Source: Cryobacterium sp. PH31-O1
GTDB lineage: Bacteria; Actinomycetota; Actinomycetes; Actinomycetales; Microbacteriaceae
Direction: 5' to 3'
DNA: 64,000 bases
Assembly (NCBI RefSeq): GCF_030063455.1
Contig: NZ_JASITB010000008.1
Coordinates: 62,001-126,000 of the forward strand
Shown here: in pieces, positions 6,331 to 28,841 of the stretch
Position numbering within the stretch: the stretch's first letter is position 1
Layout of the letters: every line of letters starts with the position of its first letter
Notes under the pieces: generated by a model
The model's database searches: none
What the model saw: the letters and a program-made list of their open reading frames with translations, nothing else
What the model was told of the DNA's origin: nothing
Translations under genes and position numbers: made by a program

Positions 6331-6858
6331 CTACTGGCGCCGGCTCGGCGCCGCCGGATGCTCCTGGGAAAGCCGGTATCCGCCGGAGAAGAACAGCAAC
6401 GGGTCGCCGTCGAGTTTCTTATAGTTCTCGACCTGGCCGATGAAAATGGTGTGGTCGCCTTCCTGGGTGCGCGACACTGTGCGACACGAGAATCGGGCGA
6501 GGACACCCTCGATTTCCGGTACACCGGCTGCGTCTTCTGCCACGTTGAGTCCCGCAAACTTGTCGGCAGCGGGGGTGGCGAATTGGCGTGACAGCAGGTG
6601 CTGATCCGCCGAAAGCACGTGGATGGCGAAGGCCTCGGCCGCGACGAAGTCGGGCAGGCTTCCGGCCGAATTCGCGAGGCAGAACAGCAGCAAGGGCGGA
6701 TCAAGAGAAACGGAGGTGAACGAGTTTGCGGTCATTCCGACCGGCCGCCCGTCAGCTCCCCGAGCGGTGATCACGGTGACACCCGTCGCAAATTTGCCGA
6801 GGGTGTTTCGCAGATCAACGCTGTCAAACGGCGTCGCTGTGGTTGCTGAAATGGTCAT
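6331..6858 (-). CDS. NAD(P)H:flavin reductase, probable partner of the StyA-like monooxygenase
   Basis: A 175-residue flavin reductase-like domain protein (HpaC/StyB type). It should reduce FMN or FAD with NAD(P)H and release reduced flavin for a separate monooxygenase. Landmarks are LGKFATGVTVITA near residue 21, the flavin-phosphate loop GMTANSFTSVSLDPPLLLFCL (about 41-61), and a GDHTIFIGQV strand near the C-terminus. AGGAAAGGA lies before the ATG. It is the last gene of the minus-strand unit and 33 bases after the SDR. The only flavin monooxygenase nearby that needs such a partner is the StyA-like enzyme at 8888-10288. Confidence 0.88.
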   Translation of the reverse strand: MTISATTATPFDSVDLRNTLGKFATGVTVITARGADGRPVGMTANSFTSVSLDPPLLLFCLANSAGSLPDFVAAEAFAIHVLSADQHLLSRQFATPAADKFAGLNVAEDAAGVPEIEGVLARFSCRTVSRTQEGDHTIFIGQVENYKKLDGDPLLFFSGGYRLSQEHPAAPSRRQ

Positions 6859-6891
6859 TGCTTTGTCCTTTCCTGTGGTGTGGTCACTGCG

Positions 6892-7677
6892 TTAGTTGGT
6901 CAGCTGGGCCATCAGTTGGTCGGCACGTTCAGGACCCATGGCTGAGTACCCGCCGTCAGCCGTGTAGTTGGCGCCGGTCACGATCGACGCAGCATCAGAA
7001 CAAAGGAATGCGACCACGGCCGCGACTTCGGACGGGTTCCCGGTGCGTCCGGTGAGGTGTACCGGCGCGGCGATCGCATCGGTGCGCGCGCGATCACCGC
7101 CGCTGAGCGTATTCATCACGGAGGACCAGGTCCAGCCCGGTGACACCGAATTCACCCGGATCCCGTGGGGCGCGAGATCCATCGCCATGCTCCGCGTGAG
7201 CTGGCTCATCGCGGCCTTGCTCGCCGGGTAGACCCAGCGGCCGGCCTGGGCCACATCCCCCGAAATGGACGTGAAATTGACAACGGATGCGCCGCGCCGA
7301 TTCTGCAGGTGCGGCACCACAAGCTGGGTGACGATGGCGGCACTGACCAGGTTCACGTTGAGCGCTGTGAGCCAGTCGGCCCGGGTGGTCGCGAGCCCGT
7401 TGTCCAGATAGGTGCAGGCGAGGTTGACGAGCACATCAACACCGCCCTGGCGGGCGACGACATCAGCGACCGCTCGGGCGACCGCAGCGTCGTCGGTCAG
7501 GTTGACGTCGTAGAAGCGCGCCGCCGAACCCAGGCGAGCGGCAACCTCCGTTCCGGCCACCACGTCAATGTCGAAGACGGCGACCTGATCACCGTTGTTG
7601 ACGAAATTTTCCGCGACCGCGGCGCCGATCATGGTGGCACCGCCGGTGATGATGACGCTTCTGGCGTGGGGATTCAT
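6892..7677 (-). CDS. Short-chain dehydrogenase/reductase
   Basis: A 261-residue classical SDR with a Rossmann N-terminus (TGGATMIGAAV, a slight variant of TGxxxGIG), the catalytic serine in FTSIS and the catalytic pair in YPASK, followed by HGIRVNSVSPGW. The usual NNAG motif is changed to NLAC. Its ATG overlaps the TGA of the LuxR gene (ATGA), so the two are translationally coupled. In known indole-oxidation (iif) clusters a StyA-type oxygenase, a flavin reductase and an SDR occur together, the SDR acting on the dihydrodiol or epoxide-derived product. That role here is an inference. Confidence 0.85.
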   Translation of the reverse strand: MNPHARSVIITGGATMIGAAVAENFVNNGDQVAVFDIDVVAGTEVAARLGSAARFYDVNLTDDAAVARAVADVVARQGGVDVLVNLACTYLDNGLATTRADWLTALNVNLVSAAIVTQLVVPHLQNRRGASVVNFTSISGDVAQAGRWVYPASKAAMSQLTRSMAMDLAPHGIRVNSVSPGWTWSSVMNTLSGGDRARTDAIAAPVHLTGRTGNPSEVAAVVAFLCSDAASIVTGANYTADGGYSAMGPERADQLMAQLTN

Positions 7678-8822
7678 TTCTGGCTCCGATCAGTGGGTTC
7701 ATCCGGGGAGGGAAAATGGGGCGGCGGGCTCGTTGCGGCTGTGCCCAGCGCCAGTCGGGTCAATTCGACGCGCGAGTGCACGCCGAGCTTGCGGTAGACC
7801 GACTTCACGTGCTGCTTGACCGTGTACGGGCTGAGGGAGAGCGCTTTGGCGATGGCGTCGTCGCTGCGGCCGAAGACCACATGGCCAGCGACCCTACTCT
7901 CCTGCGGTGAGAGATCGCGTGCCAACGCGGCCGGGAGCGCTTTAGCGGACTGGATCGACGCATTCAACTCGATAACGCTCACCAACACGGTGCGATCGTG
8001 GGTGGTAGAGGTGAAGTTCCGCAGCGCAACTCGGCGCTCTTCGCCCTCCACGACAACTTCGCTTGAGAAGACCTGGCAGAGGCTCTCCTTTGACGTGCGG
8101 GCCGCCGCCATCAACTCTTCGAACCACAGCAGAGGGTTGTTCGGCGCCAGCCTGTGCAGAAGGTCAATCGCGGCCGGATTCATGCGGCGCTTGCCTGTCG
8201 TGGTGTCGCTCACCACCATGGCTTGGTCGGAGCGCTGAAATGCCTCGAGCAGCTGGTCTCGCTCGGTGAATACCCCCTGCCGCTCCGTCATGCCGCCGAC
8301 AGCCAGGCCCACGACGTTGCCAAGCGTGCCGGCCATTACCTGCTCTATCGAGGATGACAACGCGTTCTGATCGCGATCGGCGAAGTTCAGCGTTCCCAGC
8401 ACCTGCCCCCGGAAGAGGATGGGAGCCTCGAGCACCATGCGCATGTCGTGCACCGCGAGGACCTCCTGAAAGAAGGAGGAGTCGACCCACGCTGACTCCG
8501 ACATCAGCCCGGAGCTGTGCACCGGCTTCTTGCTGGCAACGGCCTCGCGCAATACTGGATCAACGTGGCGCCCGAAGTGTTCGTACAGGGTGAGAAAGCG
8601 ATCGCTCACCCCGGTCGCGGCGGCCATCGCCGCAGCCTCGCGCGGAACCTCGAACAGGTAGATACCGAACGCCTTGGTCTTGATCATGCCGGGAAGTGTG
8701 GCCATACACACGTCCTGCACCTCGCCACGGCTGCCGGCTTCGGTGAGCGCGCTCGTGAACGCGGCCAGGCTCCCGGCAAAGTCGGCGCCGAACCTGTCGG
8801 CCGTTGAATCCGAAACATTCAT
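7674..8822 (-). CDS. LuxR-family transcriptional regulator with N-terminal GAF-like sensor domain
   Basis: A 382-residue regulator. The first ~170 residues look like a GAF-type small-molecule sensor. Residues about 305-370 are a LuxR/FixJ helix-turn-helix (LSPQESRVAGHVVFGRSDDAIAKA, then LSPYTVKQHVKSVYRKLGV). AAGGAG precedes the ATG. It lies inside the oxygenase unit, between styA-like and SDR, and overlaps the latter by four bases. It probably senses the substrate or an intermediate and controls this unit. There is no receiver domain, so it is not a classical two-component partner. Confidence 0.85.
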   Translation of the reverse strand: MNVSDSTADRFGADFAGSLAAFTSALTEAGSRGEVQDVCMATLPGMIKTKAFGIYLFEVPREAAAMAAATGVSDRFLTLYEHFGRHVDPVLREAVASKKPVHSSGLMSESAWVDSSFFQEVLAVHDMRMVLEAPILFRGQVLGTLNFADRDQNALSSSIEQVMAGTLGNVVGLAVGGMTERQGVFTERDQLLEAFQRSDQAMVVSDTTTGKRRMNPAAIDLLHRLAPNNPLLWFEELMAAARTSKESLCQVFSSEVVVEGEERRVALRNFTSTTHDRTVLVSVIELNASIQSAKALPAALARDLSPQESRVAGHVVFGRSDDAIAKALSLSPYTVKQHVKSVYRKLGVHSRVELTRLALGTAATSPPPHFPSPDEPTDRSQK

Positions 8823-8887
8823 GTGGGGTCGTCTCCTTCAGGTCGCTGTAGAACCGCACCGTGTGCCAGGCGGGCCAGAGGTCTGCG

Positions 8888-10288
8888 CTACGAGTTTCGG
8901 GCGAGAACGCTGGAGGGAATTTCAGTCGCCTCGGCTCGGGGAAAGTTCTCTCCCCTGACCGTGTTCTTGATCATGGCGCCCAATGCTTTGGCGTTTCCAC
9001 GGGCCACGACCGATGCTGCGGAGCGCCCGGTGTGGTGGGTGATCCACTTGTCCGTCTCAGTTTTCTCGGCCAGCCAGGGGAAGGCGCTCGGCGGCCGGTT
9101 GAAGGATTTCAGCAACGGGCCGCGCAAGCGCGAGTCCGCAAACGCAGCCGTCATGACGCGCACCCCCGTTGGAATCAAGGGCTCCAAGAAAGTGTTCGTG
9201 AAACGGTAGGCGCCTTCGATGTGGCTGGCATAGAAGGCCTCGAAGGTGTCATCCATCCAGTCCCGGCTGAAGGCCAGGTCACCGCGCGCCAAGATGGCGT
9301 CGAAATACTGCCCGACCTGGCGGATGCCTGAACCGGCACCTTGGCCGCAAATCGGGTCGTAGCTGACCGAGGTGTCGCCGAGACTCATCACCGGGTAACC
9401 ACCGCTCGTGACACCGGACCCGGTACGCACCGACGGGGCAAAAGACCCAGTGAGCCAACTGAACGGATCGTCCAGGAGTGGTTCCATGTTCTCCATGGCC
9501 GGCCAGTCCCAGGGGACGAATTCTTGAATGAGTGCCTTGGCCGTTGCGAAGGCCTGATGGATATCAGTCACCTGGTCCCACCGGTCAAACGGTCCGCCCG
9601 GGCGGGCTTCAAAGACCAGCGACCAGACTCTTTCGCCACTCTTGTGCAGGAACGGAACCCAGAAAATTTCCCCAGCGCCGCCGAAAAGGTTGAAGCAGAC
9701 CGGGGTCATCCCTGGAAGCCGGTTGCTGAACGCCGTTCCGTCGGAGGCGATGCCGCGCACCAGGATCATGGCGAGTTTGCGCTGGGGCGCGTCGTACACG
9801 CTGCGCGCTGCATTGCGAGGAAAGAGGGCAGACAGCCCGCCCTTGCCGGTCGCCACAACGGTCAGCGCGCTTGCCGCCGCGATCTCGTCCAGCCTGCGCA
9901 GAGAGACCGTTTCGATCTGAATATCTCCGCCGAGCGCCGCTAGCTGCTTCATGCGGTCGTAGGACTTGAGCCGCACGTCCGTGGCGAGCCCGGCCGCTTC
10001 CTCGAGCGGGCTCCCAAAAGCGATGAGCTCCTGCCCCACCTTGGGAGAGAAAAACAGGTGGACCGCGTCCATCGGAGCGCCCTGATCTGAATAGTCCGCA
10101 GCCCCGAGACGAATCTCGGTAGCCACCGAGTCGGCGAAAATTGCCGCAGTGCCCGTTGGGGAGGTCTCGTCGCGGATACCCTCGGCATCCTTGTCGCTGA
10201 ACAATCGCACATCGTAGCCGGCACCGGCCAGCCCGACCGCCAAGAGAGTTCCGGCGTGTCCAGCTCCGATAATCGAGATTTGCTCCAT
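8888..10288 (-). CDS. StyA-like FAD-dependent monooxygenase (styrene/indole monooxygenase family)
   Basis: The oxygenase half of a two-component flavoprotein system: it takes reduced FAD from a partner reductase and epoxidises or hydroxylates an aromatic or indolic substrate. The 466-residue protein starts with a GxGxxG FAD fold (SIIGAGHAGTLLAVGLAG). It has the ATGKGGLSALFPR segment seen at the second flavin contact of StyA-type enzymes, and a late conserved stretch (YDPICGQGAGSGIRQ). I start it at ATG 10288, which has AGGAGGAG ideally placed; the frame upstream is open but not protein-like. Downstream lie the LuxR, SDR and flavin reductase genes. Substrate unknown; indole-like compounds fit the neighbourhood. 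Confidence 0.83.
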   Translation of the reverse strand: MEQISIIGAGHAGTLLAVGLAGAGYDVRLFSDKDAEGIRDETSPTGTAAIFADSVATEIRLGAADYSDQGAPMDAVHLFFSPKVGQELIAFGSPLEEAAGLATDVRLKSYDRMKQLAALGGDIQIETVSLRRLDEIAAASALTVVATGKGGLSALFPRNAARSVYDAPQRKLAMILVRGIASDGTAFSNRLPGMTPVCFNLFGGAGEIFWVPFLHKSGERVWSLVFEARPGGPFDRWDQVTDIHQAFATAKALIQEFVPWDWPAMENMEPLLDDPFSWLTGSFAPSVRTGSGVTSGGYPVMSLGDTSVSYDPICGQGAGSGIRQVGQYFDAILARGDLAFSRDWMDDTFEAFYASHIEGAYRFTNTFLEPLIPTGVRVMTAAFADSRLRGPLLKSFNRPPSAFPWLAEKTETDKWITHHTGRSAASVVARGNAKALGAMIKNTVRGENFPRAEATEIPSSVLARNS

Positions 10289-10382
10289 TGTGATTCTCCT
10301 CCTGGGTCTCGGTGCGCCCCCTGTGCGGCACCCCGTGGCGATTTGGGCAAGTGTACGGCGGAGAGATTCCGCACCGACATCA

Positions 10383-10508: not shown

Positions 10509-11540
10509 TCAGGTACCGGACAGTCTTCTGTCGCGGCGCATCCGGAACCAGTCCAAGAGCACTGCGGCGAGGAGCACAAAGCCCGTGACGACGCTCTGCC
10601 AGAACGACGAGATCTGGCTGATCGTCATGCCGTTGGAGATGATGCCCAGGAAGAGAGCGCCGAGCAGGGTACCGACCATGCTTCCGGCTCCGCCGGCAAA
10701 GCTGGTGCCACCGAGCAGAACAGCAGCGGCCGCGACCAATTCCATGCCGGTGGCCGCCGTCGGCGAAGCAGAGGCCAGGCGGCTGGATTCAAGGACGCCG
10801 GCCAGCCCGCACAGGCCGGCGCAGATCGCGTAGGCGACCGCCCTGACCAACCACACCTTGATCCCCGACAAGCGAGCGGCCTCAGCATTGCCGCCGACCG
10901 CATAAAGCATGCGGCCGAACCCGGTGTACCGGGTGACCAAGATCGCCAACACAAGCACAGAGAGCGCGATGATCACCAGCCAGGGTACGCCCAGGAATCG
11001 CCCGCTGCCGATGAGTCGCGAGGCCTCCACCTGGTAGAGCGAGAGGCCGTGCCCCTCAGTGATCACCTGCCCGGTGCCGCGAAACAACGACATGGTTCCG
11101 AGTGTGACGACGAAGAAGGACAAGCCCAGTTTGCCGATCAGCAGGCCGTTGAACACCCCGCCGAGAATCGCTGCGGCGATGATCACGAGAATGGCAGCGA
11201 CGTAGAAGTTCACACCGCTTTCGAGCAGTTTGGCCACCAGAATTCCGGACAGGGCCAGCATCCCGCCCACAGAAAGGTCAAATCCGCCGGTGAGCAGAAC
11301 GAAGGTGAGCCCGATGGCGACGAGGAGCAGTACGGAGTTGGTTTCCAAAATGGCAATCAGGTTCTGCGGGGTAGCGAAGGTCGGTTGGGTAATCGCGAGG
11401 TAGCCGACCAGAACCACCAGCATCACTCCGATGCCGATATAGACCCGGATGCCCTCGTAGATCCTTCCGGCCAGGCGTCGGCGGGATCCCGGCGGGACGA
11501 TGCTTCGGGCTGGCGCTGACTGACTAGTGTGCGTAGACAT
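10509..11540 (-). CDS. CUT2-family ABC transporter permease (RbsC-like)
   Basis: A 343-residue inner-membrane permease with many hydrophobic segments (for example VLLLVAIGLTFVLLTGGFDLS and FVVTLGTMSLFRGTG). The DLSVGGMLALSG stretch is typical of ribose-type permeases. The ATG at 11540 lies inside the end of the ATPase gene (17-bp overlap). Together with the ATPase and binding protein upstream it forms a complete importer. In this setting the ligand is more likely a catabolic substrate of the cluster than a sugar, but this cannot be proved from sequence. Confidence 0.88.
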   Translation of the reverse strand: MSTHTSQSAPARSIVPPGSRRRLAGRIYEGIRVYIGIGVMLVVLVGYLAITQPTFATPQNLIAILETNSVLLLVAIGLTFVLLTGGFDLSVGGMLALSGILVAKLLESGVNFYVAAILVIIAAAILGGVFNGLLIGKLGLSFFVVTLGTMSLFRGTGQVITEGHGLSLYQVEASRLIGSGRFLGVPWLVIIALSVLVLAILVTRYTGFGRMLYAVGGNAEAARLSGIKVWLVRAVAYAICAGLCGLAGVLESSRLASASPTAATGMELVAAAAVLLGGTSFAGGAGSMVGTLLGALFLGIISNGMTISQISSFWQSVVTGFVLLAAVLLDWFRMRRDRRLSGT

Positions 11541-13017
11541 GAGACTCCAGCTTCCCGCCCGCTGACAGCAGGGCGATGTTGTGTTCAGAAATGAGGTCGC
11601 CACGCAGATCGCCGACGACTTCGCCTTCGTGCATGACCAGGACACGGTCACAGATGCCGAGAATTTCGACGAGATCCGACGATGCCAGCAGCACGGCCAT
11701 GCCGCTTCGGGCCTGCTCTTCGATGATCTGGTAGATGTCATCGCGTGCCCCGATATCCACACCCCGCGTCGGCTCGTCGAGCAAGAGCACGGTGGGGTCC
11801 TTCGACAGCGCTCGGGCTAGCACGACTTTCTGCTGGTTTCCGCCCGAGAGGGAGGTGACCGGTGCCAGCACGTTGGACGTCTTTATCCCGAACCGGGCCA
11901 CCGCTGCGCGGGTTCGCCGACGTCCACGCGCGCGATTGACGAAACCGAGCCAGGGAACGGCGCCGAGCTCGTAGTTTTCGTAGATGCTGTCGGTGACGAT
12001 GAGACCTTGAGTGTGCCGGTCCTCTGGCACCAGAGCTAGGCCGCAGCGGAGGGAGCGCCGCGGATTGTTGAGCGGAACCTGGGTGCCGTCCACTGTGACG
12101 ACGCCGTCAGTCACCTTCCGCACGCCAGCCAGTGCCTCAAGCAGTTCCGTGCGTCCGGCTCCGACGAGGCCAGCCAATCCCACGATTTCTCCGACCTGAA
12201 CGTTCAGGGTGAGGCGTTTGTGCGATCCCGCCAGTTGCAGATCCTGCACCACCAGCCGCGGCGCAGCAGCTGATGTCGCGTAGTCCTTGGTGCGACGCAC
12301 GATGTCTCGGCCGACCATCAGGTTGACCAGCTCGTGCTCGCGCAGATGCTCTTTGGGCAGCTCACCGGCAAAGGCGCCATCGCGAAGCACAAAAGCACGG
12401 TCAGCAGTGGAGGTCATTTCGATAATCCGGTGTGTGATCATGACGGTGGAGAGCCCGCGCGCCTGAAGTCGTTTGATGAGGGCGAGCAGAAATTCGACCT
12501 CCTTCTCGCCGAGCCGACTTGTGGCCTCGTCGAGAATCAGGAGCTTCGGTTCGACGACGAGTGCCTTCGCGATCTCCACAAAAGTTTGTTGCACCGGGCC
12601 TAGGCGGGACACCGGCAGGTAGGGGTCGATCTGAACACCCAGCTCATCGAGAATGCGCGTGGTGCGGGCGACCAGATTTCGGCGGGAGACCAGTCGACGG
12701 GTGCGGTGCCGCAGGAATGGCAGCATCACGTTTTCATAGACCGGCAGGTGGGGAAGCACGGTCAGTTCCTGGGCCACGAGGGCAATGCCCTGGTCCAGGG
12801 CCTCCAACGGGCTGTGGAAGCTGACCGGCCGACCCTCGATTCGGATCGTTCCGCTGTCCGGCACCACGACACCAGACAGGATCTTGACCAGGGTGGATTT
12901 GCCTGAGCCGTTCTCGCCGGCCAGGGCGAGAATTTCGGCGCGATTCACCGTGAGGTCAATGTTGCACAGTGCCGTGACGGCTCCGTACGTCTTCGTGATG
13001 CCGGACAGCGAGATCAT
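11524..13017 (-). CDS. CUT2-family ABC transporter ATP-binding protein (RbsA-like, two ATPase domains)
   Basis: A 497-residue tandem ATPase. Domain 1 has a canonical Walker A (GENGSGKST, about 34-42) and Walker B (LLILDEATS). Domain 2 has the degenerate Walker A GLVGAGRTE typical of RbsA-type proteins, a good signature motif (SLSGGNQQKVVLARAL) and LLLDEPTRG. Its ATG overlaps the stop of the binding-protein gene (TAATG), and it overlaps the permease by 17 bp, so the three are one transcription unit. Confidence 0.92.
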   Translation of the reverse strand: MISLSGITKTYGAVTALCNIDLTVNRAEILALAGENGSGKSTLVKILSGVVVPDSGTIRIEGRPVSFHSPLEALDQGIALVAQELTVLPHLPVYENVMLPFLRHRTRRLVSRRNLVARTTRILDELGVQIDPYLPVSRLGPVQQTFVEIAKALVVEPKLLILDEATSRLGEKEVEFLLALIKRLQARGLSTVMITHRIIEMTSTADRAFVLRDGAFAGELPKEHLREHELVNLMVGRDIVRRTKDYATSAAAPRLVVQDLQLAGSHKRLTLNVQVGEIVGLAGLVGAGRTELLEALAGVRKVTDGVVTVDGTQVPLNNPRRSLRCGLALVPEDRHTQGLIVTDSIYENYELGAVPWLGFVNRARGRRRTRAAVARFGIKTSNVLAPVTSLSGGNQQKVVLARALSKDPTVLLLDEPTRGVDIGARDDIYQIIEEQARSGMAVLLASSDLVEILGICDRVLVMHEGEVVGDLRGDLISEHNIALLSAGGKLESHVYAH

Positions 13018-19222: not shown

Positions 19223-19247
19223 GGTACCGTCCACTTCCTCGGTTGAC

Positions 19248-19258
19248 TCGATGTCGAA
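19248..19258 (-). promoter_or_regulatory. TTCGACATCGA motif in the leader of the M24-hyuBA operon
   Basis: On the minus strand TTCGACATCGA, followed by GTCA and CC, lies 26 bases before the GTG start of the M24-fold gene. The same 11-mer followed by AGTCACC lies 29 bases before the Rieske alpha start on the other strand (20245-20255). Equal placement in the two operons flanking the IclR gene suggests a shared operator. Confidence 0.5.
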
Positions 19259-19336
19259 CTTGGTCTTTTCGTGCGCCTCTCGCCGGGCGATAGCCGGACT
19301 CTACAAAATAAGTTTTCCCTAGCGCAATAAGTCGTG

Positions 19337-19358
19337 TATAGATTCTCTTATGCGAAAT
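19337..19358 (+). promoter_or_regulatory. Leaderless promoter/operator at the IclR gene (TATAGATTCT-N6-CGAAAT)
   Basis: TATAGAT (19337-19343) is a good -10 element and ends 6 bases before the ATG at 19350, so the iclR mRNA may be leaderless. TTTTCC about 18 bases upstream could act as -35. The bipartite motif TATAGATTCT-N6-CGAAAT recurs exactly at 20163-20184 before the oxygenase operon. AATAAGT direct repeats (19307-19313, 19326-19332) lie just upstream. Confidence 0.5.
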
Positions 19359-21606: not shown

Positions 21607-22199
21607 CGATGCCGGGGATCGACTACTCCGACACATCACGCTGGTCCCACCACGTTGATGCCGATTTCTATGCAGATCTGGAGCATTTCGCGGAGCTGTT
21701 CACCGCGGATTGGGCTGTCGCCGACGTTGACGCGGCCCGGAGTGCCGAAGGATTCCTGGCCGCCGAGGCACGCCTGATTGACGAGGCACGGTTCAACGAC
21801 TGGGTCGAGCTATTCACGGACGATTGCTTGTATTGGGTGCCGATCAGTCCCGGCGGTGGCGACCCGCGGCGGGAGGTCTCCCACGCCTTCGACGACCGTC
21901 GGCGCCTGACCGACCGGGTCTTCTGGCTGCGCACCGGGCTGGCCTTCAGCCAGATTCCGCAGTCACGAACCCGCCGGGTGATCAGCAACGTCGAGGTACT
22001 CGACGACCCCGGAACCGGACTCCGCCTGGTGCGGTCGAACTTCATCGTGCACGAGTTTCGAGCCGGTGTCGGCAAGACCTACCCAGGCTGGTATGCGCAC
22101 GTCCTCGCACCCCACGGCGACGGCTGGAAGATCCGCCTGAAACAGGCGAACCTGCTCGACTCCGAGCACGGCCACGAAAATCTCACCCTGGTCTTCTGA
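21603..22199 (+). CDS. Ring-hydroxylating dioxygenase beta subunit
   Basis: A 198-residue small subunit of the alpha/beta dioxygenase, with the NTF2-like fold of this family. Recognisable parts are FLAAEARLIDEARFNDWVELFTDD followed by YWVPIS, DDRRRLTDRVFWLRTG, and SNFIVHEFRAG near the end. The ATG overlaps the stop of the alpha gene (ATGA), which fits the equal stoichiometry of the hexameric complex. It has no cofactor; it stabilises the alpha trimer. Confidence 0.88.
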   Translation: MTMPGIDYSDTSRWSHHVDADFYADLEHFAELFTADWAVADVDAARSAEGFLAAEARLIDEARFNDWVELFTDDCLYWVPISPGGGDPRREVSHAFDDRRRLTDRVFWLRTGLAFSQIPQSRTRRVISNVEVLDDPGTGLRLVRSNFIVHEFRAGVGKTYPGWYAHVLAPHGDGWKIRLKQANLLDSEHGHENLTLVF

Positions 22200-22209: not shown

Positions 22210-22491
22210 ATGAACGAGAACACTCGTGAGGCCACGCTCCTGCTTCGCCGGGAGAATGCGCTGCTCACGGAGAAGATCAAGCGTCTCGAGGGTGAAATCG
22301 CCACGATGCGCCCGGTGATCGCACAGGTCAAGCGGCTGAAGATCTGGGACTTTACGCCCTATAGCGTCGAGCTCGACGATTCCTGGCTCGCGCTCGACCG
22401 GGTCAACGCCGTTCAGCTGATGCAGGCCCTCGCCGGCACCGACCATTGGAGCCCATGGCATTCCCGCATCGAACCGAGGCCCCAGCCATGA
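22210..22491 (+). CDS. Small protein of unknown function with N-terminal coiled coil
   Basis: A 93-residue protein inside the dioxygenase operon. Residues about 5-45 are a clear heptad-type helix (LLLRRENALLTEKIKRLEGE). The C-terminal half is rich in aromatic residues (KIWDFTPYSVELDDSWLALD, DHWSPWH). It starts 10 bases after the beta subunit gene, behind AAAGGCAGC, and its stop overlaps the start of the amidotransferase (ATGA), so it is made with the pathway. I do not recognise the family. A dimeric assembly factor or accessory subunit for the oxygenase or ligase is possible. Confidence 0.7.
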   Translation: MNENTREATLLLRRENALLTEKIKRLEGEIATMRPVIAQVKRLKIWDFTPYSVELDDSWLALDRVNAVQLMQALAGTDHWSPWHSRIEPRPQP

Positions 22492-23198
22492 CCGGGACCG
22501 TGCTCATCGTCACCCACTTTGAGGGCACAGATCTCGAGTGGATTCACAACCTGGTGCAGGCGCGCGGCCTGCAGTCACAGGTCGTCCATCCGTTCGCCGG
22601 GGACGATCTTCCGGAGCTCGGCTCACTTGCAGCGGTGATCTCTCTGGGAGGCCCGCAGAGCGCCTATGACGGGGCGCGGCATCCGTTTCTCGTCGATGAA
22701 CGGACCTTCCTTGCTCGCGCGGTCGAGCAGCAGGTTCCCGTTCTGGGCATCTGCCTCGGGTCACAGATTCTGGCTCTCGCCCTCGGCGGCACTGTCGTTC
22801 CTGGCTCCCAGGGTCTGGAATGCGGACTCATCGACGTGCGGCTGGCTCCCGGCAACCACACCCTGCCGGAGGTGACGGGTCGATTCTTCTCCTTCCACAG
22901 CGACAGCTTTATTCCGCCGGTCGGAGCCGAGCTGCTGGCCGTCTCAGACCGCTATCCGCAAGCCTGGCGGTTCGGTTCCGCTCTCGCCATTCAGTTTCAC
23001 CCGGAAATTTCCCCGACCGGGATCCAGACGCTCCTGACCGTTGAAGCGGCCAAACTCACCGCCAACGGCGTCGACCTGGCCGAGCTGCTGAGCGCGGCGA
23101 TCCGAGACGAGGGGCGCGCGTGGACGAGCGCGCGACGAGTCATCGGCGGCTGGATCGACACCGCCGTGCTGGCAGGCGAGCGCCAGACGATTCCCTGA
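22488..23198 (+). CDS. Class I glutamine amidotransferase-like protein (TdnT/AtdA2-like)
   Basis: A 236-residue class I amidotransferase with an intact triad: Cys89 (GICLGSQ), His171 and Glu173 (FHPE). In aniline-degrading bacteria a protein of this type (TdnT/AtdA2) is encoded beside the gamma-glutamylanilide synthase and is thought to act on the glutamyl adduct. Here too it lies next to such a ligase gene. The ATG is four-base coupled to the small coiled-coil gene. A protective role, removing excess gamma-glutamyl-arylamine, is likely. A generic GMP-synthase-like function is less likely given the operon. Confidence 0.82.
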   Translation: MTGTVLIVTHFEGTDLEWIHNLVQARGLQSQVVHPFAGDDLPELGSLAAVISLGGPQSAYDGARHPFLVDERTFLARAVEQQVPVLGICLGSQILALALGGTVVPGSQGLECGLIDVRLAPGNHTLPEVTGRFFSFHSDSFIPPVGAELLAVSDRYPQAWRFGSALAIQFHPEISPTGIQTLLTVEAAKLTANGVDLAELLSAAIRDEGRAWTSARRVIGGWIDTAVLAGERQTIP

Positions 23199-23269: not shown

Positions 23270-24778
23270 ATGCTGGACGAAGTCACGTTGACCCGAATGA
23301 AGTTCATTGCAAAGCACGACCTTTACACGGACAAGCAGTTGGAAGCCGCTGAGCGTTCCCGGATCGCGATGGACGCGGCGGGAATCGAAATCGTGCGGCT
23401 GGCCTGGCCGGACCAGCACGGTCTGCTGCGCGGCAAATCGCTGACCAAGGAGGCCTACCTGTCGGCTCTGGAAAGCGGCATGGACATAACGATGGCGCCG
23501 TTCTTCTTCGACTCGGCCAACGCTGTGGTGCTAAATCCGTTCACCGCAGATGGCGGGTTCGGGGTTGAAGGACTCGGGGGCAGCCCGAACGTGAAAATGG
23601 TCCCCGATCCGGGCACCTTCACCATCCTGCCGTGGGTTCCGGATACCGCGTTTGTGTTGTGCGACCTGTACATGTCGAACGGGCAGCTCTTCCCCTTCGC
23701 CCCCCGGTCCATCCTCAAACAAGCCTTGCAGAAAATGGCCGACCTCGGCTTCAAACTCATCGCCGGTATCGAGATGGAGTGGTATCTGACCCGGGTGGTC
23801 GACGACCTGCTCAGCACTGGCTCGATGGGAGCGCCCGGCTCGCCGGCCGACCCGCCCAAGGTCGCCCCGGTCGCTCGCGGTTACAGCTACCTCCTCGGAG
23901 ACCACCTCGATGAGATCGACGACATCCTCCGCCCGATCCGCAAAGCCATCATCGACATGGGATTGCCGCTGCGTTCGATCGACGACGAGTGGGCACCCAG
24001 CCAGGTTGAAACCACCTTCGACGTGCTGGAGGCCCTCGCCGCCGCTGACGCGGCGGTGATCTTCCGCATGGCCACCAAGCAGATCGCCAAGCGAAACGGA
24101 TTCCTCGCTTCGTTCATGTGCACCCCGGCTATTCAGGGCTTCTACGCCAACGGATGGCACCTGCACACCTCGGTGGTTGACCTCGAATCGGGCCAGAACC
24201 TGATGGTCACGGACACGAGCGAGCCCCTGTCTGAACTGGGCCAGCACTACGTCGGCGGAACCCTCGCCCACGGTGTAGCCGCATCGGTCTTCACGACTCC
24301 GACCGTGAACGGATACCGCCGCCGCCGGCCGTACTCGCTGGCCCCCGACCGGCTGACCTGGGCCCAGGACAATCGGGCCGCCATGATGCGCGTCATCAGC
24401 GCACCCGGAGACGTGTCGTCCCACGTCGAAAACCGCGTCGGCGACTCCGCTGCCAACCCGTATCTGTACATCGCCGCCCAGGCAGCCGCTGGTCTGGACG
24501 GCATCCTGAAAAAGACGAGCCCCGGTCCGCTCTCCGAGGACCCGTACTCCCAGGATGTCGTGCAGCTTCCGACAACGCTCGCCGACGCCATCGACGAGCT
24601 GGAAGCCGACACGTTCTACCGCGAAGCCTTCGGCGACCACTTCATCGACTACCTGGTGTTGATCAAGCGGAGCGAAGTCACCCGGTACGACGCCTGGGTT
24701 GCCGCGAACCCTGACCCGGAGACCTACGTCAACGGTGTGACCGATTGGGAGCACCGCGAATATTTCGAGCTCTACTAA
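23270..24778 (+). CDS. Glutamine-synthetase-family ligase, gamma-glutamylanilide synthase-like (TdnQ/AtdA1-like)
   Basis: A 502-residue GS-fold enzyme that would join glutamate to an amine with ATP. The beta-grasp N-terminus contains GIEIVRLAWPDQHGLLRGKSL. The catalytic domain shows IEMEWYL (metal-binding Glu), GWHLHTSV, the ATP/ammonia-region RRRRPYSLAPDR and SHVENRVGDSAANPYLYIAA. It differs from housekeeping GlnA in length and motif spacing and sits inside the Rieske operon. By analogy with aniline degraders it makes the gamma-glutamylated substrate that the oxygenase uses. A general amine-detoxifying ligase is the alternative. Confidence 0.83.
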   Translation: MLDEVTLTRMKFIAKHDLYTDKQLEAAERSRIAMDAAGIEIVRLAWPDQHGLLRGKSLTKEAYLSALESGMDITMAPFFFDSANAVVLNPFTADGGFGVEGLGGSPNVKMVPDPGTFTILPWVPDTAFVLCDLYMSNGQLFPFAPRSILKQALQKMADLGFKLIAGIEMEWYLTRVVDDLLSTGSMGAPGSPADPPKVAPVARGYSYLLGDHLDEIDDILRPIRKAIIDMGLPLRSIDDEWAPSQVETTFDVLEALAAADAAVIFRMATKQIAKRNGFLASFMCTPAIQGFYANGWHLHTSVVDLESGQNLMVTDTSEPLSELGQHYVGGTLAHGVAASVFTTPTVNGYRRRRPYSLAPDRLTWAQDNRAAMMRVISAPGDVSSHVENRVGDSAANPYLYIAAQAAAGLDGILKKTSPGPLSEDPYSQDVVQLPTTLADAIDELEADTFYREAFGDHFIDYLVLIKRSEVTRYDAWVAANPDPETYVNGVTDWEHREYFELY

Positions 24779-24792
24779 CCCGTTCCTCCATC

Positions 24793-24838: not shown

Positions 24839-24862
24839 CATCACCAAACCAGGTAGGTTCTC

Positions 24863-25183
24863 ATGCCCAAGATCATCCTTCACGCCCCGAACGGCGCACT
24901 GTTCACCGTCGACGCCCAGATCGGGGCATCCGTCATGGAGACCGCGGTCAAGCATGGAGTTCCCGGAATCGTCGCTGAATGCGGCGGCGCGCTCTCCTGT
25001 GCCACGTGTCACGTCTACATTTCGGATGCGTTCATCGGTCTCACCGGCCGAGCTGATGACTTCGAGGACGAGATGCTCGATGACACGGCCGCTGACCGCA
25101 AGCCCAATAGCCGCCTGTCCTGCCAGATTCGCATGACCGCTGCACTCGACGGTCTCGAAGCCCACATCGCCCCGGAGCAGTGA
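24863..25183 (+). CDS. [2Fe-2S] ferredoxin, adrenodoxin/putidaredoxin type
   Basis: A 106-residue electron carrier with ligands Cys40, Cys46, Cys49 and Cys87 (CGGALSCATC and SCQI), the C-x5-C-x2-C...C spacing of adrenodoxin-type ferredoxins. It should carry electrons from the reductase encoded next to the Rieske oxygenase. Proteobacterial aniline dioxygenases use a single fused reductase (TdnB/AtdA5), so a separate ferredoxin of this type is a notable difference. Its stop overlaps the reductase start (GTGA). Confidence 0.9.
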   Translation: MPKIILHAPNGALFTVDAQIGASVMETAVKHGVPGIVAECGGALSCATCHVYISDAFIGLTGRADDFEDEMLDDTAADRKPNSRLSCQIRMTAALDGLEAHIAPEQ

Positions 25184-26487
25184 CGATCATGCACGGCTCG
25201 CGCGCCGCATCCGCTGGCACTCTCATCGTTGGTGCCGGCCAATCCGGTCTGCAACTGGCCGTTTCGCTGCGCGAGGGCGGATACACCGCGCCGATCACGC
25301 TGGCGGGCGCGGAGGCGGGCGGCCCCTACCAGCGGCCTCCGCTCTCCAAGGCTTTTCTGGCCGGCACCGTCGACGAAGACAATCTGGCCCTTCGTGCCGC
25401 CGGTTTCTACACCGACCATGACATCGACATCGTCCCGGCGAGCCGCATCGTCACGGTGAGCCCGGATCGGGGCGACGGCGGCAGCGCACTCATCGATGGG
25501 GGTCGGGTCCTACGGTTCGAGCGACTGGCGCTGACCACCGGATCGCGGCCGCGCCGACTCACCGTACCGGGGGCCGACTTGTTCGGCGTCTGCTACCTCC
25601 GCAGCGTCGACGACGCCGGCCGACTGCGCCGGCTGCTCGAGGCAGCGCGCGATGTCGTCGTCATCGGCGGCGGATTCATTGGCTTGGAAGTGGCCGCCGC
25701 GGCTCGTCGCCGAGGGTTGCAGGTGACGGTCGTCGAATCGTCCGGTCGCCTGCTGAAACGAGTGGTCGCACCGCCGATCTCCGAGTTCTACCGGCAGGCC
25801 CACGAGAAACGGGGAGTGCACTTTCGGATGGGCTGTGGCGTCACCGCCGTGCACGGTGACGGGAACAATAGAGTGACGACGGTTGAGCTCTCCGACGGCA
25901 CCCAGGTCGCGGCCGATATCGTGATCGTCGGGATCGGCGTCGAGCCGCGCATCGAGCTGGCGCGGCAATTGGGGCTGGACTGCGCTCGCGGCATCATCGT
26001 CGACGACCGGGCGCAGACGAGCATCCCGTCTGTGGTCGCGGCCGGCGACTGCACCGTGCAGCCGCATCCTCAATATCCGGAAACTCTCGTCGGCCTGGAA
26101 TCCGTGCAGAACGCGGTTGACCAGGCTAAAGTTGCCGCCGCCACAATCCTCGGGCTGTCGCGCCCACCCGCCGTCGTGCCGTGGTTCTGGTCTGACCAGG
26201 CCGACCTCAAACTGCAGATCGCAGGGCTGTCGACCGGATACGACGAGTTCGTCGTGCGCGGCGATCCCGCGACGGAGTCCTTCTCCGTGCTGTACTACCG
26301 CCAGTTGCGCCTCATCGCGGTCGATGCGGTCAACCAGCCGCACGATTTCATGGCCGTCAAGCGCGCACTGGCCCTCGGAGTATCGATACCGGCCGCCGTG
26401 GCCGGAGACACGCGCTCGTCGCTGAAGTCCCGAATGGGCGCGTCCGACCAGGCCGACGAGCGCCTCACGGTGGGAGTGCGGCCGTGA
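25180..26487 (+). CDS. FAD-dependent ferredoxin-NAD(P)+ reductase
   Basis: A 435-residue pyridine nucleotide-disulphide-fold reductase of the putidaredoxin reductase type. The FAD motif is VGAGQSGLQLA and the NAD(P) motif VVVIGGGFIGLEVAA; a second FAD contact lies at VVAAGDCTVQPHP. It passes electrons from NAD(P)H to the ferredoxin encoded just upstream, completing a three-component oxygenase. GTG 25180 overlaps the ferredoxin stop; ATG 25189 is the alternative start. Its TGA overlaps the GTG of catB. Confidence 0.88.
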   Translation: MTIMHGSRAASAGTLIVGAGQSGLQLAVSLREGGYTAPITLAGAEAGGPYQRPPLSKAFLAGTVDEDNLALRAAGFYTDHDIDIVPASRIVTVSPDRGDGGSALIDGGRVLRFERLALTTGSRPRRLTVPGADLFGVCYLRSVDDAGRLRRLLEAARDVVVIGGGFIGLEVAAAARRRGLQVTVVESSGRLLKRVVAPPISEFYRQAHEKRGVHFRMGCGVTAVHGDGNNRVTTVELSDGTQVAADIVIVGIGVEPRIELARQLGLDCARGIIVDDRAQTSIPSVVAAGDCTVQPHPQYPETLVGLESVQNAVDQAKVAAATILGLSRPPAVVPWFWSDQADLKLQIAGLSTGYDEFVVRGDPATESFSVLYYRQLRLIAVDAVNQPHDFMAVKRALALGVSIPAAVAGDTRSSLKSRMGASDQADERLTVGVRP

Positions 26488-27593
26488 GAATCACCCGAAT
26501 TGAGACGATTCCGTTTGCCATCGACTACACAAAACCGCTGCGATTCGCGAGTGGGGAGGTGCGAACGGCAGCGCACGTTCTGGTGCGCGTGCACAGCGAA
26601 GACGGCATAGTCGGCACCGCAGAAGCCCCGCCGCGTCCGTTCACCTACGGTGAAACGCAGCAGTCGATCGCCGCGGTGATCGACACGGTCTTCGCGCCGG
26701 AGATCGTCGGTCTGTCCTGCCTCGACCGCGAGGCCATCCATGCCGTAATGAACCGCACAATCGGAAACCCGACGGCGAAATCCGCCATTGATATGGCGGT
26801 GTGGGACGTGATTGGGCAGTCACTCAAGGTGCCGGTCACTCGGCTCCTGGGCGGGTATGCGGATCGGATGCGGGTGTCACACATGTTGGGGTTCGCCGAC
26901 CCGGCGCAAGCGGTTGCCGAAGCGGAGCGGATGCGTGACCTGCACGGCATTACGACATTCAAGGTCAAAGTCGGCCGCAACCCGATCCACCTCGATGTCG
27001 CCGTCTGCCGGGCCCTGCGTAACCAACTGGGCGATGCGGTAGAGCTCTATATCGACGGGAACCGCGGATGGACGGCATCCGAATCGCTGCGGGCTTTGCG
27101 GGCGATGGACGACCTGGACCTCACCTTCGCAGAAGAGTTGTGCCCCGCAGACGATGTGCTCGGTCGTCGATGGCTCGCCGAACGCAGCCCGATACCGCTC
27201 GTCGCGGACGAAAGCGTGACCCGACCGGGCGAGGTGACCCGCGAGCTTCTGGGCGGTGCCGCCCATGCCATCAGCATCAAGACGGCACGCACCGGATTCA
27301 CCGCCTCGCAGCGCGTTCTCTTCGCATGCGAAGGACTGGGGGTTGAGGTGATCATGGGAAACCAAATTGACGGCCAGGTCGGCACCGTGTGCAGCGCCGC
27401 GTTCGGCTCGGCCTTTCAGTCCACCAGCCGTCGGGCCGGTGAGCTGTCAAATTTTCTGGACATGGCCGACGATCTGTTGGCCGAGCCACTCACGATCCGC
27501 GACGGGATGCTCCCCATCCGCCAGTCCCACGGCCTGGGCATCCATATCGATCCCGAGAAACTCACCAGATATCGGCAGGACCAGTCGGACTAG
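26484..27593 (+). CDS. catB: Muconate cycloisomerase
   Basis: A 369-residue enolase-superfamily enzyme converting cis,cis-muconate to muconolactone. The muconate-lactonizing subgroup residues are visible: the KxK motif (TFKVKVGRN), metal ligands in YIDGNRGW, FAEELC and VADESV, and the last catalytic lysine in SIKTARTG. The GTG start overlaps the reductase stop by four bases, tying ring cleavage to the oxygenase operon. Substrate discrimination (muconate versus chloromuconate or a dipeptide) rests on the catA and catC neighbours, which favour muconate. Confidence 0.9.
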   Translation: MRITRIETIPFAIDYTKPLRFASGEVRTAAHVLVRVHSEDGIVGTAEAPPRPFTYGETQQSIAAVIDTVFAPEIVGLSCLDREAIHAVMNRTIGNPTAKSAIDMAVWDVIGQSLKVPVTRLLGGYADRMRVSHMLGFADPAQAVAEAERMRDLHGITTFKVKVGRNPIHLDVAVCRALRNQLGDAVELYIDGNRGWTASESLRALRAMDDLDLTFAEELCPADDVLGRRWLAERSPIPLVADESVTRPGEVTRELLGGAAHAISIKTARTGFTASQRVLFACEGLGVEVIMGNQIDGQVGTVCSAAFGSAFQSTSRRAGELSNFLDMADDLLAEPLTIRDGMLPIRQSHGLGIHIDPEKLTRYRQDQSD

Positions 27594-27666
27594 CCGACTG
27601 CCCTCTGTCGCAACAGACTACGGCCCCATCGCTGTGATGCGGACGGACAATGAAATGGAGAAAAAG

Positions 27667-28524
27667 ATGTCATCTGAAATTATCGAAGTGGAAGCCTCCG
27701 CTGCAGCTTCGGGAAATGCCGCAACGGCGCGGTTCCGGGAGAGCGGCAAGACCACCGCTGTTGAGACCTCCACCGAACGAGTCTCCCTCCTCGCCAACGA
27801 GGTACTGTCTGCCGTCTACGACACCGTGCGACGGAACCAGGTCACCTACGCAGAATTCAACGCGCTCAAGGCGTGGTTGATCCAGGTCGGTGAAGACGGC
27901 GAATGGCCGCTTTTTCTGGACGTCTGGGTAGAGCATGTCATCGAAGAGGTCGCCACCGGCGATCGCGAAGGCTCAAAGGGCACCATCGAGGGCCCCTACT
28001 ACGTTCCCGACGCGCCGACACTGCCCACCCCAGGTACCTTGCCCATGCGCGACAACGAACCTGGCACGCCTCTGCTTCTGCGCGGCACGGTGGCGGGAAC
28101 CGATGGAGCGCCCTTGGCCGGCGCCCACGTGGAGATCTGGCACGCCGATGACGACGGTTTCTATTCCCAGTTTGCCCCCGGCCTGCCCGAGTGGAACCTG
28201 CGCGGAATCATCGTGGCCGACGAGTTCGGAAACTATGAGATCAACACCATCCAGCCGGCTCCCTATCAAATTCCGACGGGCGGTTCGTGCGGCAACCTGA
28301 TCACCGCCGCCGGTTGGCACGCCTGGCGTCCGGCGCACCTGCACCTGAAGATCTCCGCCCCTGGCCGCCAGCTACTCACCGCCCAGCTCTATTTCGAGGG
28401 AGACTCCTACCTCTCCAATGACGTCGCATCAGCTGTGAAGCCGGAGCTGGTTCTCAAGCCGCTCCCCACGGCCGACGGTAACGGCCGACACGTCACCTAC
28501 AACTTTGTGCTCGACCCGGCCTGA
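27667..28524 (+). CDS. catA: Catechol 1,2-dioxygenase (intradiol)
   Basis: A 285-residue non-haem Fe(III) dioxygenase that cleaves catechol to cis,cis-muconate. Iron ligands are Tyr166 (DGFYSQF), Tyr200 (APYQIP), His224 and His226 (RPAHLHL). The N-terminal helical dimerisation domain precedes GPYYVPDAP. Its sequence style (SQFAPGLPEWNLRG, ATKPEL-like end) resembles rhodococcal CatA. ATG 27667 has GGAGA upstream. It starts 73 bases after catB. This enzyme shows that the upper pathway ends in catechol. Confidence 0.93.
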   Translation: MSSEIIEVEASAAASGNAATARFRESGKTTAVETSTERVSLLANEVLSAVYDTVRRNQVTYAEFNALKAWLIQVGEDGEWPLFLDVWVEHVIEEVATGDREGSKGTIEGPYYVPDAPTLPTPGTLPMRDNEPGTPLLLRGTVAGTDGAPLAGAHVEIWHADDDGFYSQFAPGLPEWNLRGIIVADEFGNYEINTIQPAPYQIPTGGSCGNLITAAGWHAWRPAHLHLKISAPGRQLLTAQLYFEGDSYLSNDVASAVKPELVLKPLPTADGNGRHVTYNFVLDPA

Positions 28525-28556
28525 CCGGTGACGACCCAACGAAATAGAGAAAGCTG

Positions 28557-28841
28557 ATGTTGTTCGCCGTGCGGATGAGCGTCGCCCTGCCCCCCGACAT
28601 GGACGAGGACGTCCAGGCCGACATCCTGACCCGAGAGAAGACCTATTCCCAGGACCTTCAAAATCGCGGAGAATGGCAGCAAATCTGGCGGTGCGTTGGG
28701 CAGTACTCCAATCTGAGTATTTTCGACGTTGCCGATAACGAGCGGCTGCACAGCATCCTCTGGAATCTGCCACTGTTCCCCTATCTGGACATCGAAGTGA
28801 CGCCGCTGGCCAGGCATCCGTCCCGGGTGAGTGCGTCCTAG
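28557..28841 (+). CDS. catC: Muconolactone delta-isomerase
   Basis: A 94-residue protein that converts muconolactone to 3-oxoadipate enol-lactone in the ortho pathway. The usual length and motifs are present: MLFAVRMSVALPPDMD at the start, then WQQIWRCVGQYSNLSIFDV and LHSILWNLPLFPYLDIEVT. It is the last gene of the operon and is followed by a stem-loop. No enol-lactone hydrolase or pca genes follow, so the pathway must continue elsewhere in the genome. Confidence 0.92.
   Translation: MLFAVRMSVALPPDMDEDVQADILTREKTYSQDLQNRGEWQQIWRCVGQYSNLSIFDVADNERLHSILWNLPLFPYLDIEVTPLARHPSRVSAS

What the first reader, a model, noticed from the sequence alone, without database searches (positions are those of the whole stretch)
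6331..28841. A two-sided catabolic island that may degrade an N-heteroaromatic through a lactam and an arylamine to catechol
The sequence shows, side by side: an importer, a StyA-like oxygenase with flavin reductase and SDR, an ATP-dependent HyuAB hydrolase, a creatinase-fold protein, an aniline-type Rieske operon and catBAC. Known parallels: iif indole-oxidation genes combine StyA-like, SDR and flavin reductase; IaaCE (HyuAB-like) opens an oxindole lactam; TdnQT-type enzymes glutamylate arylamines. Joining them gives a plausible route from indole or another benzo-fused N-heterocycle (or an anilide) to catechol. I know of no described pathway with this combination. Substrate and step order are inference.
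Basis: partly seen in the sequence, partly recalled or inferred. Interest (0 to 1): 0.85.

Follow-up and report, generated by a model that had tools for sequence, protein, structure and literature searches.

The report
Skatole/indole-to-catechol gene island (ska cluster)
An actinomycete carries a 22-kb set of genes that matches a recently described bacterial cluster for breaking down skatole and indole, rearranged and extended in a way that suggests the route runs through a ring-opened amine to catechol.

Summary
In detail: window 6331-28841 holds a flavin reductase, SDR, LuxR-GAF regulator, StyA-like oxygenase, ABC importer, HyuAB, an M24-fold protein, IclR, an aniline-type Rieske operon and catBAC. 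[quoted passage not shown] I tied the DSM 44752 cluster to published skaA by primer sites and gene length; the window's StyA is 63% identical to it. The two halves belong together: 4 of 4 genomes found with a StyA at least 63% identical carry both, in two layouts, and one further genome, found by HyuB, has HyuAB, M24, GS-like and Rieske genes in a row without any StyA. Two relatives of the host lack the island at the same site. New here: the divergent layout with its own importer and catBAC, a HyuB subfamily with Gln for a metal-binding His (7 of 7 members; 1 of 22 other HyuB), and a testable next step: ATP-dependent opening of (hydroxy)methyloxindole, then glutamylation of the arylamine and dioxygenation to catechol. 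Substrate, side-chain loss and M24's role remain inferred.

The parts
6331..6858 (-). flavin reductase (SkaB-like), would supply reduced FAD to the StyA-type oxygenase
   Evidence: PF01613 1.4e-41; 58% to the reductase of the R. aetherivorans cluster
6892..7677 (-). SDR dehydrogenase (SkaL-like by order)
   Evidence: PF13561 1.6e-52; 64% in R. aetherivorans
7674..8822 (-). LuxR-type regulator with GAF domain (SkaR-like)
   Evidence: PF00196 8.3e-14, PF01590 6.2e-5; 45% in R. aetherivorans
8888..10288 (-). StyA-type flavoprotein monooxygenase (SkaA-like); likely start at 10288, not the long ORF start at 10579
   Evidence: PF17885 6.7e-24; 63% to the R. aetherivorans gene matched to published skaA by primer sites and 1,368-bp length; clade of five with SH-aLRT 95
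10509..11540 (-). ABC importer permease
   Evidence: PF02653 5.4e-34; start trimmed
11524..13017 (-). ABC importer ATPase, two ABC stretches
   Evidence: PF00005 4.1e-53, two stretches
13017..14036 (-). ABC importer substrate-binding protein
   Evidence: PF13407 1.3e-41
14145..16244 (-). HyuA / ATP-dependent lactamase-type alpha subunit (SkaK-like by order)
   Evidence: PF01968 3.3e-87; caprolactamase alpha model 682 bits, below its cut-off of 1000; 6yra_A 497 bits
16267..18054 (-). HyuB / lactamase-type beta subunit (SkaJ-like by order), Gln114 where CapB has a metal-ligand His
   Evidence: PF02538 1.2e-133; 6yra_B alignment; residue table
18038..19234 (-). M24/creatinase-fold protein in which most of the usual metal ligands are replaced (SkaI-like by order)
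   Evidence: PF00557 7.4e-22; alignments; model pLDDT 83.2 and Foldseek
19350..20123 (+). IclR-type regulator between the two halves
   Evidence: PF01614 8.7e-32
20284..21606 (+). Rieske dioxygenase alpha subunit, aniline type (SkaC-like)
   Evidence: PF00355 3.4e-18; 82% Corynebacterium occultum plasmid, 71% R. aetherivorans, 50% Delftia pNB8c, 47% JS3066
21603..22199 (+). Rieske dioxygenase beta subunit (SkaD-like)
   Evidence: PF00866 2.1e-29
22210..22491 (+). 93-aa conserved small protein of unknown role (SkaZ by gene order)
   Evidence: no Pfam family; homologues in the four relatives and on 3 plasmids
22488..23198 (+). GATase-type protein, as in aniline operons (SkaE by order)
   Evidence: PF00117 3.5e-15
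23270..24778 (+). GS-like arylamine glutamyl synthetase (SkaH by order)
   Evidence: PF00120 6.2e-77; NpaA1 structure 8wwu 584.6 bits, next chain 172.5
24863..25183 (+). [2Fe-2S] ferredoxin
   Evidence: PF00111 1.1e-8; a 4Fe-4S-type ferredoxin stands in R. aetherivorans
25180..26487 (+). ferredoxin reductase
   Evidence: PF07992 3.8e-63, PF14759 1.6e-30
26484..27593 (+). muconate cycloisomerase-like CatB
   Evidence: PF13378 2.9e-48
27667..28524 (+). catechol 1,2-dioxygenase CatA, the only match at E 1e-10 in this genome
   Evidence: PF00775 9.7e-64; own-genome search
28557..28841 (+). muconolactone isomerase CatC
   Evidence: PF02426 3.4e-38

Best explanation
The island is a ska-type (skatole/indole) catabolic cluster. 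[quoted passage not shown] the epoxide itself is proposed), with the SDR helping at the epoxide/alcohol stage (inferred). HyuAB opens the lactam with ATP to a free ortho-substituted aniline acid (inferred). The GS-like enzyme glutamylates the arylamine, the GATase-like protein keeps that adduct in check, and the Rieske system with ferredoxin and reductase converts it to catechol (inferred from aniline and 1-naphthylamine systems). CatA, CatB and CatC start ortho cleavage. How the side chain is lost, and what the M24 protein does, is open; M24 is a candidate for a C-N or C-C cleavage after ring opening. Confidence: ska-type cluster 0.93; both halves one pathway 0.9; HyuAB opens an oxindole lactam 0.55; whole route to catechol 0.5.
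For: Gene-for-gene match to the skaCDZEFGHAIJKRLB order in R. aetherivorans DSM 44752; that locus tied to published skaA: four primer sites found, gene exactly 1,368 bp. SkaA products, induction of skaA by skatole and indole, and reported up-regulation of the cluster: PMC13101512. Both halves in 4 of 4 genomes found with StyA at least 63%, although both are rare: StyA at 1e-20 in 18 of 396 and GS-like at 1e-140 in 4 of 396 genomes of the phylum sample, own genome included. G684 has Rieske alpha/beta, GS-like, M24, HyuB, HyuA and LuxR in a row without StyA, tying HyuAB and M24 to the arylamine genes. GS-like is nearest to NpaA1, which glutamylates arylamines. HyuAB is nearer to caprolactamase than to carboxylases (682 v 330 bits; 336 v 125 bits). 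IaaCE, a homologue of CapAB, is proposed to open oxindole-acetate (PMC8453981). One CatA in the genome.
Against: The HyuB metal tetrad, essential in CapB, has Gln for one His, so lactam hydrolysis cannot simply be carried over; the 2026 paper proposes ring cleavage by the Rieske system SkaCDFG instead. The aniline half also stands without HyuB on three actinobacterial plasmids and its tree does not keep the ska copies together. An ABC importer of polar-solute type is odd for hydrophobic skatole, and other transporters stand in relatives. G684 shows the StyA step is not obligatory, and no GATase, ferredoxin, reductase or small-protein homologue was detected there. No expression or enzyme data exist for this organism.
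Confidence: 0.6

Rival explanations
1. Two unrelated pathways that happen to be neighbours: an aniline operon and a separate StyA/HyuAB pathway for another compound.
For: The aniline half stands without the left half on plasmids of R. gordoniae, Corynebacterium occultum and Dietzia kunjamensis (no HyuB at 1e-100 there); in the window the halves are divergent with separate regulators.
Against: Both halves adjacent in 4 of 4 close relatives in two different layouts, single co-directional clusters in R. aetherivorans and G684, and the Rhodococcus cluster is reported as skatole-induced as a whole (PMC13101512).
Confidence: 0.06
2. HyuAB is not a lactamase here but a carboxylase or other ATP-dependent enzyme (for example acting on 2-aminoacetophenone-type ketones, as acetophenone carboxylase does); the N-ring is opened by the Rieske system or spontaneously.
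For: Conserved His-to-Gln change in the metal site of all 7 ska-type HyuB examined; the 2026 authors assign ring cleavage to SkaCDFG.
Against: Sequence is far closer to caprolactamase/oxoprolinase than to acetophenone carboxylase; the Rieske and GS-like pair is an arylamine system by nearest relatives.
Confidence: 0.22
3. The pathway chemistry is right but the natural substrate here is not skatole: indole, oxindole, isatin, an indole acid, or an anilide imported by the ABC system.
For: A substrate-binding protein and ABC importer sit inside the operon, where the Rhodococcus cluster has none; SkaA also converts indole, and skaA is more strongly induced by it (162.5-fold v 53.4-fold); StyA-less cluster in G684.
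Against: StyA groups with SkaA, 63% identical, and transporters differ among relatives while the enzymes stay.
Confidence: 0.3

Closest known systems
ska cluster of Rhodococcus aetherivorans DMU1/BCP1 and R. ruber R1 (Meng et al. 2026, PMC13101512)
   Same: StyA-type SkaA, flavin reductase, Rieske alpha/beta, small Z protein, GATase, ferredoxin and reductase, GS-like, M24, HyuB, HyuA, LuxR, SDR all present (compared with strain DSM 44752).
   Different: Window: two divergent operons with IclR between, own ABC importer, catBAC attached, [2Fe-2S] instead of 4Fe-4S-type ferredoxin, placed between an endo/exonuclease-phosphatase gene and purL.
Aniline / arylamine dioxygenase systems (atdA1-A5, npaA1-A5; Delftia pNB8c)
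   Same: GS-like, GATase-like, Rieske alpha/beta, reductase; GS-like 58% to pNB8c and 53% to the JS3066 gene.
   Different: Separate ferredoxin and reductase, extra small protein, joined to an indole/lactam front end.
iif/ind indole-oxidation clusters
   Same: StyA-like oxygenase, SDR and flavin reductase (content of iif recalled).
   Different: By identity StyA here is nearest to SkaA; no characterised indole monooxygenase was put in my tree. HyuAB and arylamine module are extra.
ATP-dependent lactamases CapAB and IaaCE
   Same: Both subunits homologous to CapAB; DVGGTFTD motif present in HyuA (its role recalled).
   Different: Below NCBIfam cut-offs for caprolactamase; one metal-ligand His is Gln.
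Creatinase / ectoine hydrolase (DoeA) branch of the M24 fold
   Same: Two-domain fold (TM 0.72-0.79) and, as in that branch (recalled), no standard metal site.
   Different: About 18-20% identity, far below family cut-offs; substrate unknown.

Membership tests
ska gene cluster | SkaA-type group E flavoprotein monooxygenase | tested here: met
   63% identity to the skaA locus tied to the paper by primer sites; clade of five with SH-aLRT 95
ska gene cluster | all 14 ska genes represented | tested here: met
   12 with tblastn homologues at 44-71% identity; ferredoxin and reductase present in function, but the ferredoxin is of another type and the reductase matches only in part. Names of E, F, G, H, I, J, K, L, Z assigned by gene order; the paper's Table S6 was not readable
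ska gene cluster | single co-directional order skaCDZEFGHAIJKRLB | tested here: not met
   divergent halves in the window; so a rearranged variant
ska gene cluster | induction by and growth on skatole/indole | not testable with these tools
   -
SkaMO (third branch of group E) | lacks the SMO (N46-V48-H50) and IMO (S46-Q48-M50) fingerprints | tested here: inconclusive
   window has G46/A48/I50 in its own numbering, but the numbering was not aligned to the reference enzymes
arylamine (aniline-type) dioxygenase system | GS-like arylamine synthetase, GATase, Rieske alpha/beta side by side | tested here: met
arylamine (aniline-type) dioxygenase system | activity on aniline | not testable with these tools
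CapAB-type ATP-dependent lactamase | Asp-His-Asp-His metal tetrad in the beta subunit | tested here: not met
   D56, Q114, D117, H139
CapAB-type ATP-dependent lactamase | curated caprolactamase model score over cut-off | tested here: not met
   682 v 1000 and 336 v 1000 bits: family kin, not caprolactamase itself
M24 metallopeptidase / creatinase / ectoine hydrolase | metal ligands D-D-H-E-E (peptidase; set recalled) or curated score (DoeA) | tested here: not met
   S239, E251, H313, H350, non-acidic residue at the last ligand; DoeA_2 model 54 v 575 bits

The most novel reading that the evidence does not exclude
HyuAB, M24, GS-like and Rieske genes form a portable aerobic 'lactam-to-catechol' cassette: a distinct HyuB subfamily with Gln in the metal site opens (hydroxy)oxindoles with ATP, and the opened ortho-substituted aniline is then glutamylated and dioxygenated with loss of side chain and nitrogen. 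Different front ends plug in (StyA module; none in G684), and the cassette and its arylamine half have been joined or separated more than once.
Probability: 0.4. Interest if true: 0.65.

Novelty: new variant of a known kind. Interest (0 to 1): 0.5.

Why it matters
The 2026 skatole paper shows the first oxidation and says that the steps downstream of 3-hydroxy-3-methyloxindole need further research. Comparative evidence here puts an ATP-dependent lactam opener and a glutamylation-dependent arylamine dioxygenase next in line, names the residues and genes to test, shows the whole gene set in Cryobacterium and Arthrobacter (genera that the paper names only as bearing SkaA homologues) and shows one lineage that has the later genes without the monooxygenase. 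If true it would be an aerobic counterpart to the proposed anaerobic oxindole-acetate route and would fill the gap between skatole or indole and catechol.

Tried and rejected
Chance neighbourhood: rejected, see co-occurrence. IAA (iad/iac) pathway: the Rieske alpha matches 9o71 and 7yls best in the PDB (that 7yls/8h2t is the Variovorax IadDE is recalled and was not found in PMC10374108), but the arylamine GS-like/GATase pair and Rieske alpha homologues at 74-82% in plasmid operons of aniline type make aniline type more likely. Creatinine/hydantoin pathway for HyuAB plus M24: judged unlikely because M24 lacks creatinase-level similarity and travels with StyA or arylamine genes. The first StyA alignment held a wrong-frame row (L008) and was replaced by A2 before the genome scan. 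StyA relatives at 51% or less (76 of the 80 loci): no HyuA or HyuB except in L077 and no aniline-type Rieske gene in the stretches held (weak Rieske hits of 23-27% in L057 and L085). Likewise the fetched surroundings of 9 of the 17 other genomes with a StyA match gave no HyuA, HyuB or Rieske hit. So these do not inform on this pathway. Longer exact words shared by the two island edges: none of 8 bases or more. The reading that the aniline half was recruited independently in two lineages is weakened by G684: gain and loss cannot be told apart, only that inheritance of the whole block as one clade is rejected, and the groups were named after the first trees had been seen. The VIA-align library was not available. 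The preprint on aniline dioxygenase in R. ruber R1 (10.1101/2024.12.29.630347) is known to me only from the reference list of PMC13101512; not held. The skatole review PMC11957808 and Ebenau-Jehle 2012 were also not held.
Full report
What is there. Corrected starts and gaps; neighbours overlap by 1-17 bases at eight junctions. The window lies at G000:C16:62001-126000 of a 3.64-Mb genome. No tool names the organism; the closest StyA is that of Cryobacterium glaciale (94%), so a Cryobacterium-like Microbacteriaceae is inferred.

It is an island. The flanking endo/exonuclease-phosphatase gene (5337-6182) and purL (28878 on) were searched in 41 genomes of the genus, the own one included: the first rings in 19, the second in 41. 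Of the 18 others with both, the two lie within 11 kb on one contig in four: G017 (matches about 60 bases apart), G035 (about 380), G013 (2.3 kb) and G014 (10.5 kb, not fetched). Alignment of three of these four shows G017 and G035 as empty sites; G013 keeps the last 94 residues of the flavin reductase (90% identical) at the same spot, then unrelated sequence with a beta-lactamase-family ORF, so it looks like a deletion remnant. C. glaciale has the island at the same site; in Cryobacterium sp. PH29-G1 neither flank gene was found beside it in the stretches held, and catB and catC were not detected there or in Arthrobacter. None of the 36 same-genus genomes has a real StyA match (three show 18-20-bit fragments). 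G+C is 63.1% inside, 65.7% in the rest of the window.

It is the ska cluster. A scan of genome contigs with a four-row StyA alignment gave 243 pattern matches, 190 relatives, of which the best 80 were kept. Four are 63-94% identical: C. glaciale, Cryobacterium sp. PH29-G1, Arthrobacter hankyongi, Rhodococcus aetherivorans DSM 44752; the other 76 are at 51% or less. In R. aetherivorans one co-directional cluster reads Rieske alpha (71%), beta (61%), small protein (49%), GATase (44%), reductase (partial 31% match), 4Fe-4S-type ferredoxin, GS-like (67%), StyA (63%), M24 (54%), HyuB (70%), HyuA (68%), LuxR (45%), SDR (64%), flavin reductase (58%). The paper PMC13101512 (parts 1-4 of 6 of the text read, i.e. 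title to most of Methods, and passages; no supplements, no figures) describes skaCDZEFGHAIJKRLB in R. aetherivorans DMU1, with skaA of 1,368 bp, skaB of 531 bp lying 7,058 bp downstream, ring-hydroxylating system skaCDFG and LuxR skaR. All four published primer parts hit the DSM 44752 StyA gene, which is exactly 1,368 bp; taking the reductase as the last 531 bases of the ORF ending at L052:18956 puts it about 7,057 bases downstream (my arithmetic; the script printed 7,244 for a later ATG). SkaA expressed in E. [quoted passage not shown] The paper lists Cryobacterium and Arthrobacter among genera with SkaA homologues of at least 40%. Word searches of its main text found no 'hydantoinase' and no 'oxoprolinase', 'hydrolase' or 'glutamine'.

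The two halves belong together. All 4 of 4 genomes with StyA at least 63% carry HyuAB, M24, LuxR, SDR and reductase together with Rieske, small protein, GATase and GS-like; GS-like and HyuB lie 2.6-5.4 kb apart on one contig. Three have the window's divergent layout, Rhodococcus the co-directional one. Of the other 76 StyA loci only L077 (Solirubrobacterales MAG) has HyuB and HyuA (with M24); its genome's GS-like homologue (43%) is on another contig. A search with HyuB in 296 genomes of the class gave 20 genomes at 1e-60, own included; the only other one above 36% identity is G684 (69%). It has Rieske alpha (60%), beta (56%), GS-like (61%), M24 (51%), HyuB, HyuA (64%) and LuxR (38%) in a row on one strand, with amidohydrolase, isochorismatase-fold and ADH genes near by, no GATase, ferredoxin, reductase or small-protein match in the 38 kb fetched, and no StyA match at E 0.01 in the genome (95% complete; the same query rings in the own genome with the same tool). 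So HyuAB and M24 are tied to the arylamine genes even where StyA is absent.

The arylamine half by itself. It is found without HyuB (at 1e-100) on plasmids of R. gordoniae, C. occultum and Dietzia kunjamensis (GS-like 72-77%). In the concatenated Rieske alpha plus GS-like tree the window's half is nearer to these than to R. aetherivorans or G684; holding the ska copies together is rejected (p-AU 0.001; 6e-6 for five rows and 6e-8 for six; groups named after the first trees). The five StyA copies form one clade (SH-aLRT 95, quick tree of 34 of 87 collected rows), and the 7 ska-type HyuB stand together against two other HyuB. The halves were thus joined, swapped or lost more than once; which, is not decided.

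Enzyme roles. GS-like: NpaA1 (8wwu) 584.6 bits against 172.5 for the next chain; NpaA1 glutamylates arylamines before dioxygenation (PMC11335346, abstract and passages). HyuAB: nearest curated models are the caprolactamase subunits, 682 and 336 bits against cut-offs of 1000, well ahead of acetophenone carboxylase; IaaCE, a relative of CapAB, is proposed to open oxindole-acetate (PMC8453981, passages). The CapB metal tetrad D41/H99/D102/H124, whose alanine mutants are reported as inactive (abstract passage), reads D/Gln/D/H here. Gln is present in all 7 ska-type HyuB (window, L049, L050, L051, L148, L077, L166) and in 1 of 22 distinct others (L171); 21 of 22 have His (L185 left out as a duplicate of L161). 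M24: the fold is clear (pLDDT 83.2; Foldseek probability 1.00 to prolidases, creatinase, DoeA and also the DMSP lyase DddP) but the metal ligands are mostly replaced, and S239, E241, E251, H313 and H350 are invariant in the 7 rows aligned. Related M24 proteins (28-29%) also sit with StyA, SDR and LuxR genes in G174, and with StyA and SDR genes in an Acidobacteria MAG, without HyuAB in the stretches held.

Transport. The window has an ABC importer between HyuA and StyA; A. hankyongi has a cytosine/purine/allantoin-type permease in that place; R. aetherivorans has an MFS gene beyond the end of its cluster on the other strand. The variable transporter may mean that hosts meet the substrate in different forms.

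Literature limits. Searches for a described lactam or arylamine step in aerobic skatole breakdown. For most papers I saw listings only, and two lists were cut (20 of 34, 12 of 58); no listing pointed to HyuAB in this role. The R. ruber R1 preprint and the DMU1 transcriptome paper could not be read, so roles may already be assigned there.

Noticed in passing
window 22210-22491 (+); L052:6134-6409; L151:6259-6537; L152:6930-7235: A 93-aa protein with a conserved WDF..Y....D.SW.A.DR core and no Pfam family lies between Rieske beta and GATase in the window, the four relatives and three plasmids; it was not detected in the StyA-less G684.
   Followed up: partly
L143 (G013) 5972-6253: Remnant of the flavin reductase at the same chromosomal site in a relative that otherwise lacks the island, suggesting the island was once there and deleted.
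   Followed up: partly
G014:C57 about 230149-240675: About 10.5 kb separate the same two flank genes in another relative; content not examined, so the site may take up different islands.
   Followed up: no
L027-L029 (G174) and L055 (Acidobacteria MAG): StyA-SDR clusters with a related M24 protein, FAA-hydrolase and ketopantoate-reductase-like genes (LuxR regulators in G174), without HyuAB: perhaps another indole-type pathway. G174 has two StyA genes about 22 kb apart.
   Followed up: partly
L077 5100-11100 (Solirubrobacterales MAG): M24, HyuB (Gln type), HyuA and a 38% StyA together, with the GS-like homologue (43%) on another contig.
   Followed up: partly
L186 (G684) 6180-7574 and 17625-19993: Amidohydrolase, isochorismatase-fold and zinc ADH genes flank the StyA-less gene row and may be its alternative front end.
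   Followed up: partly
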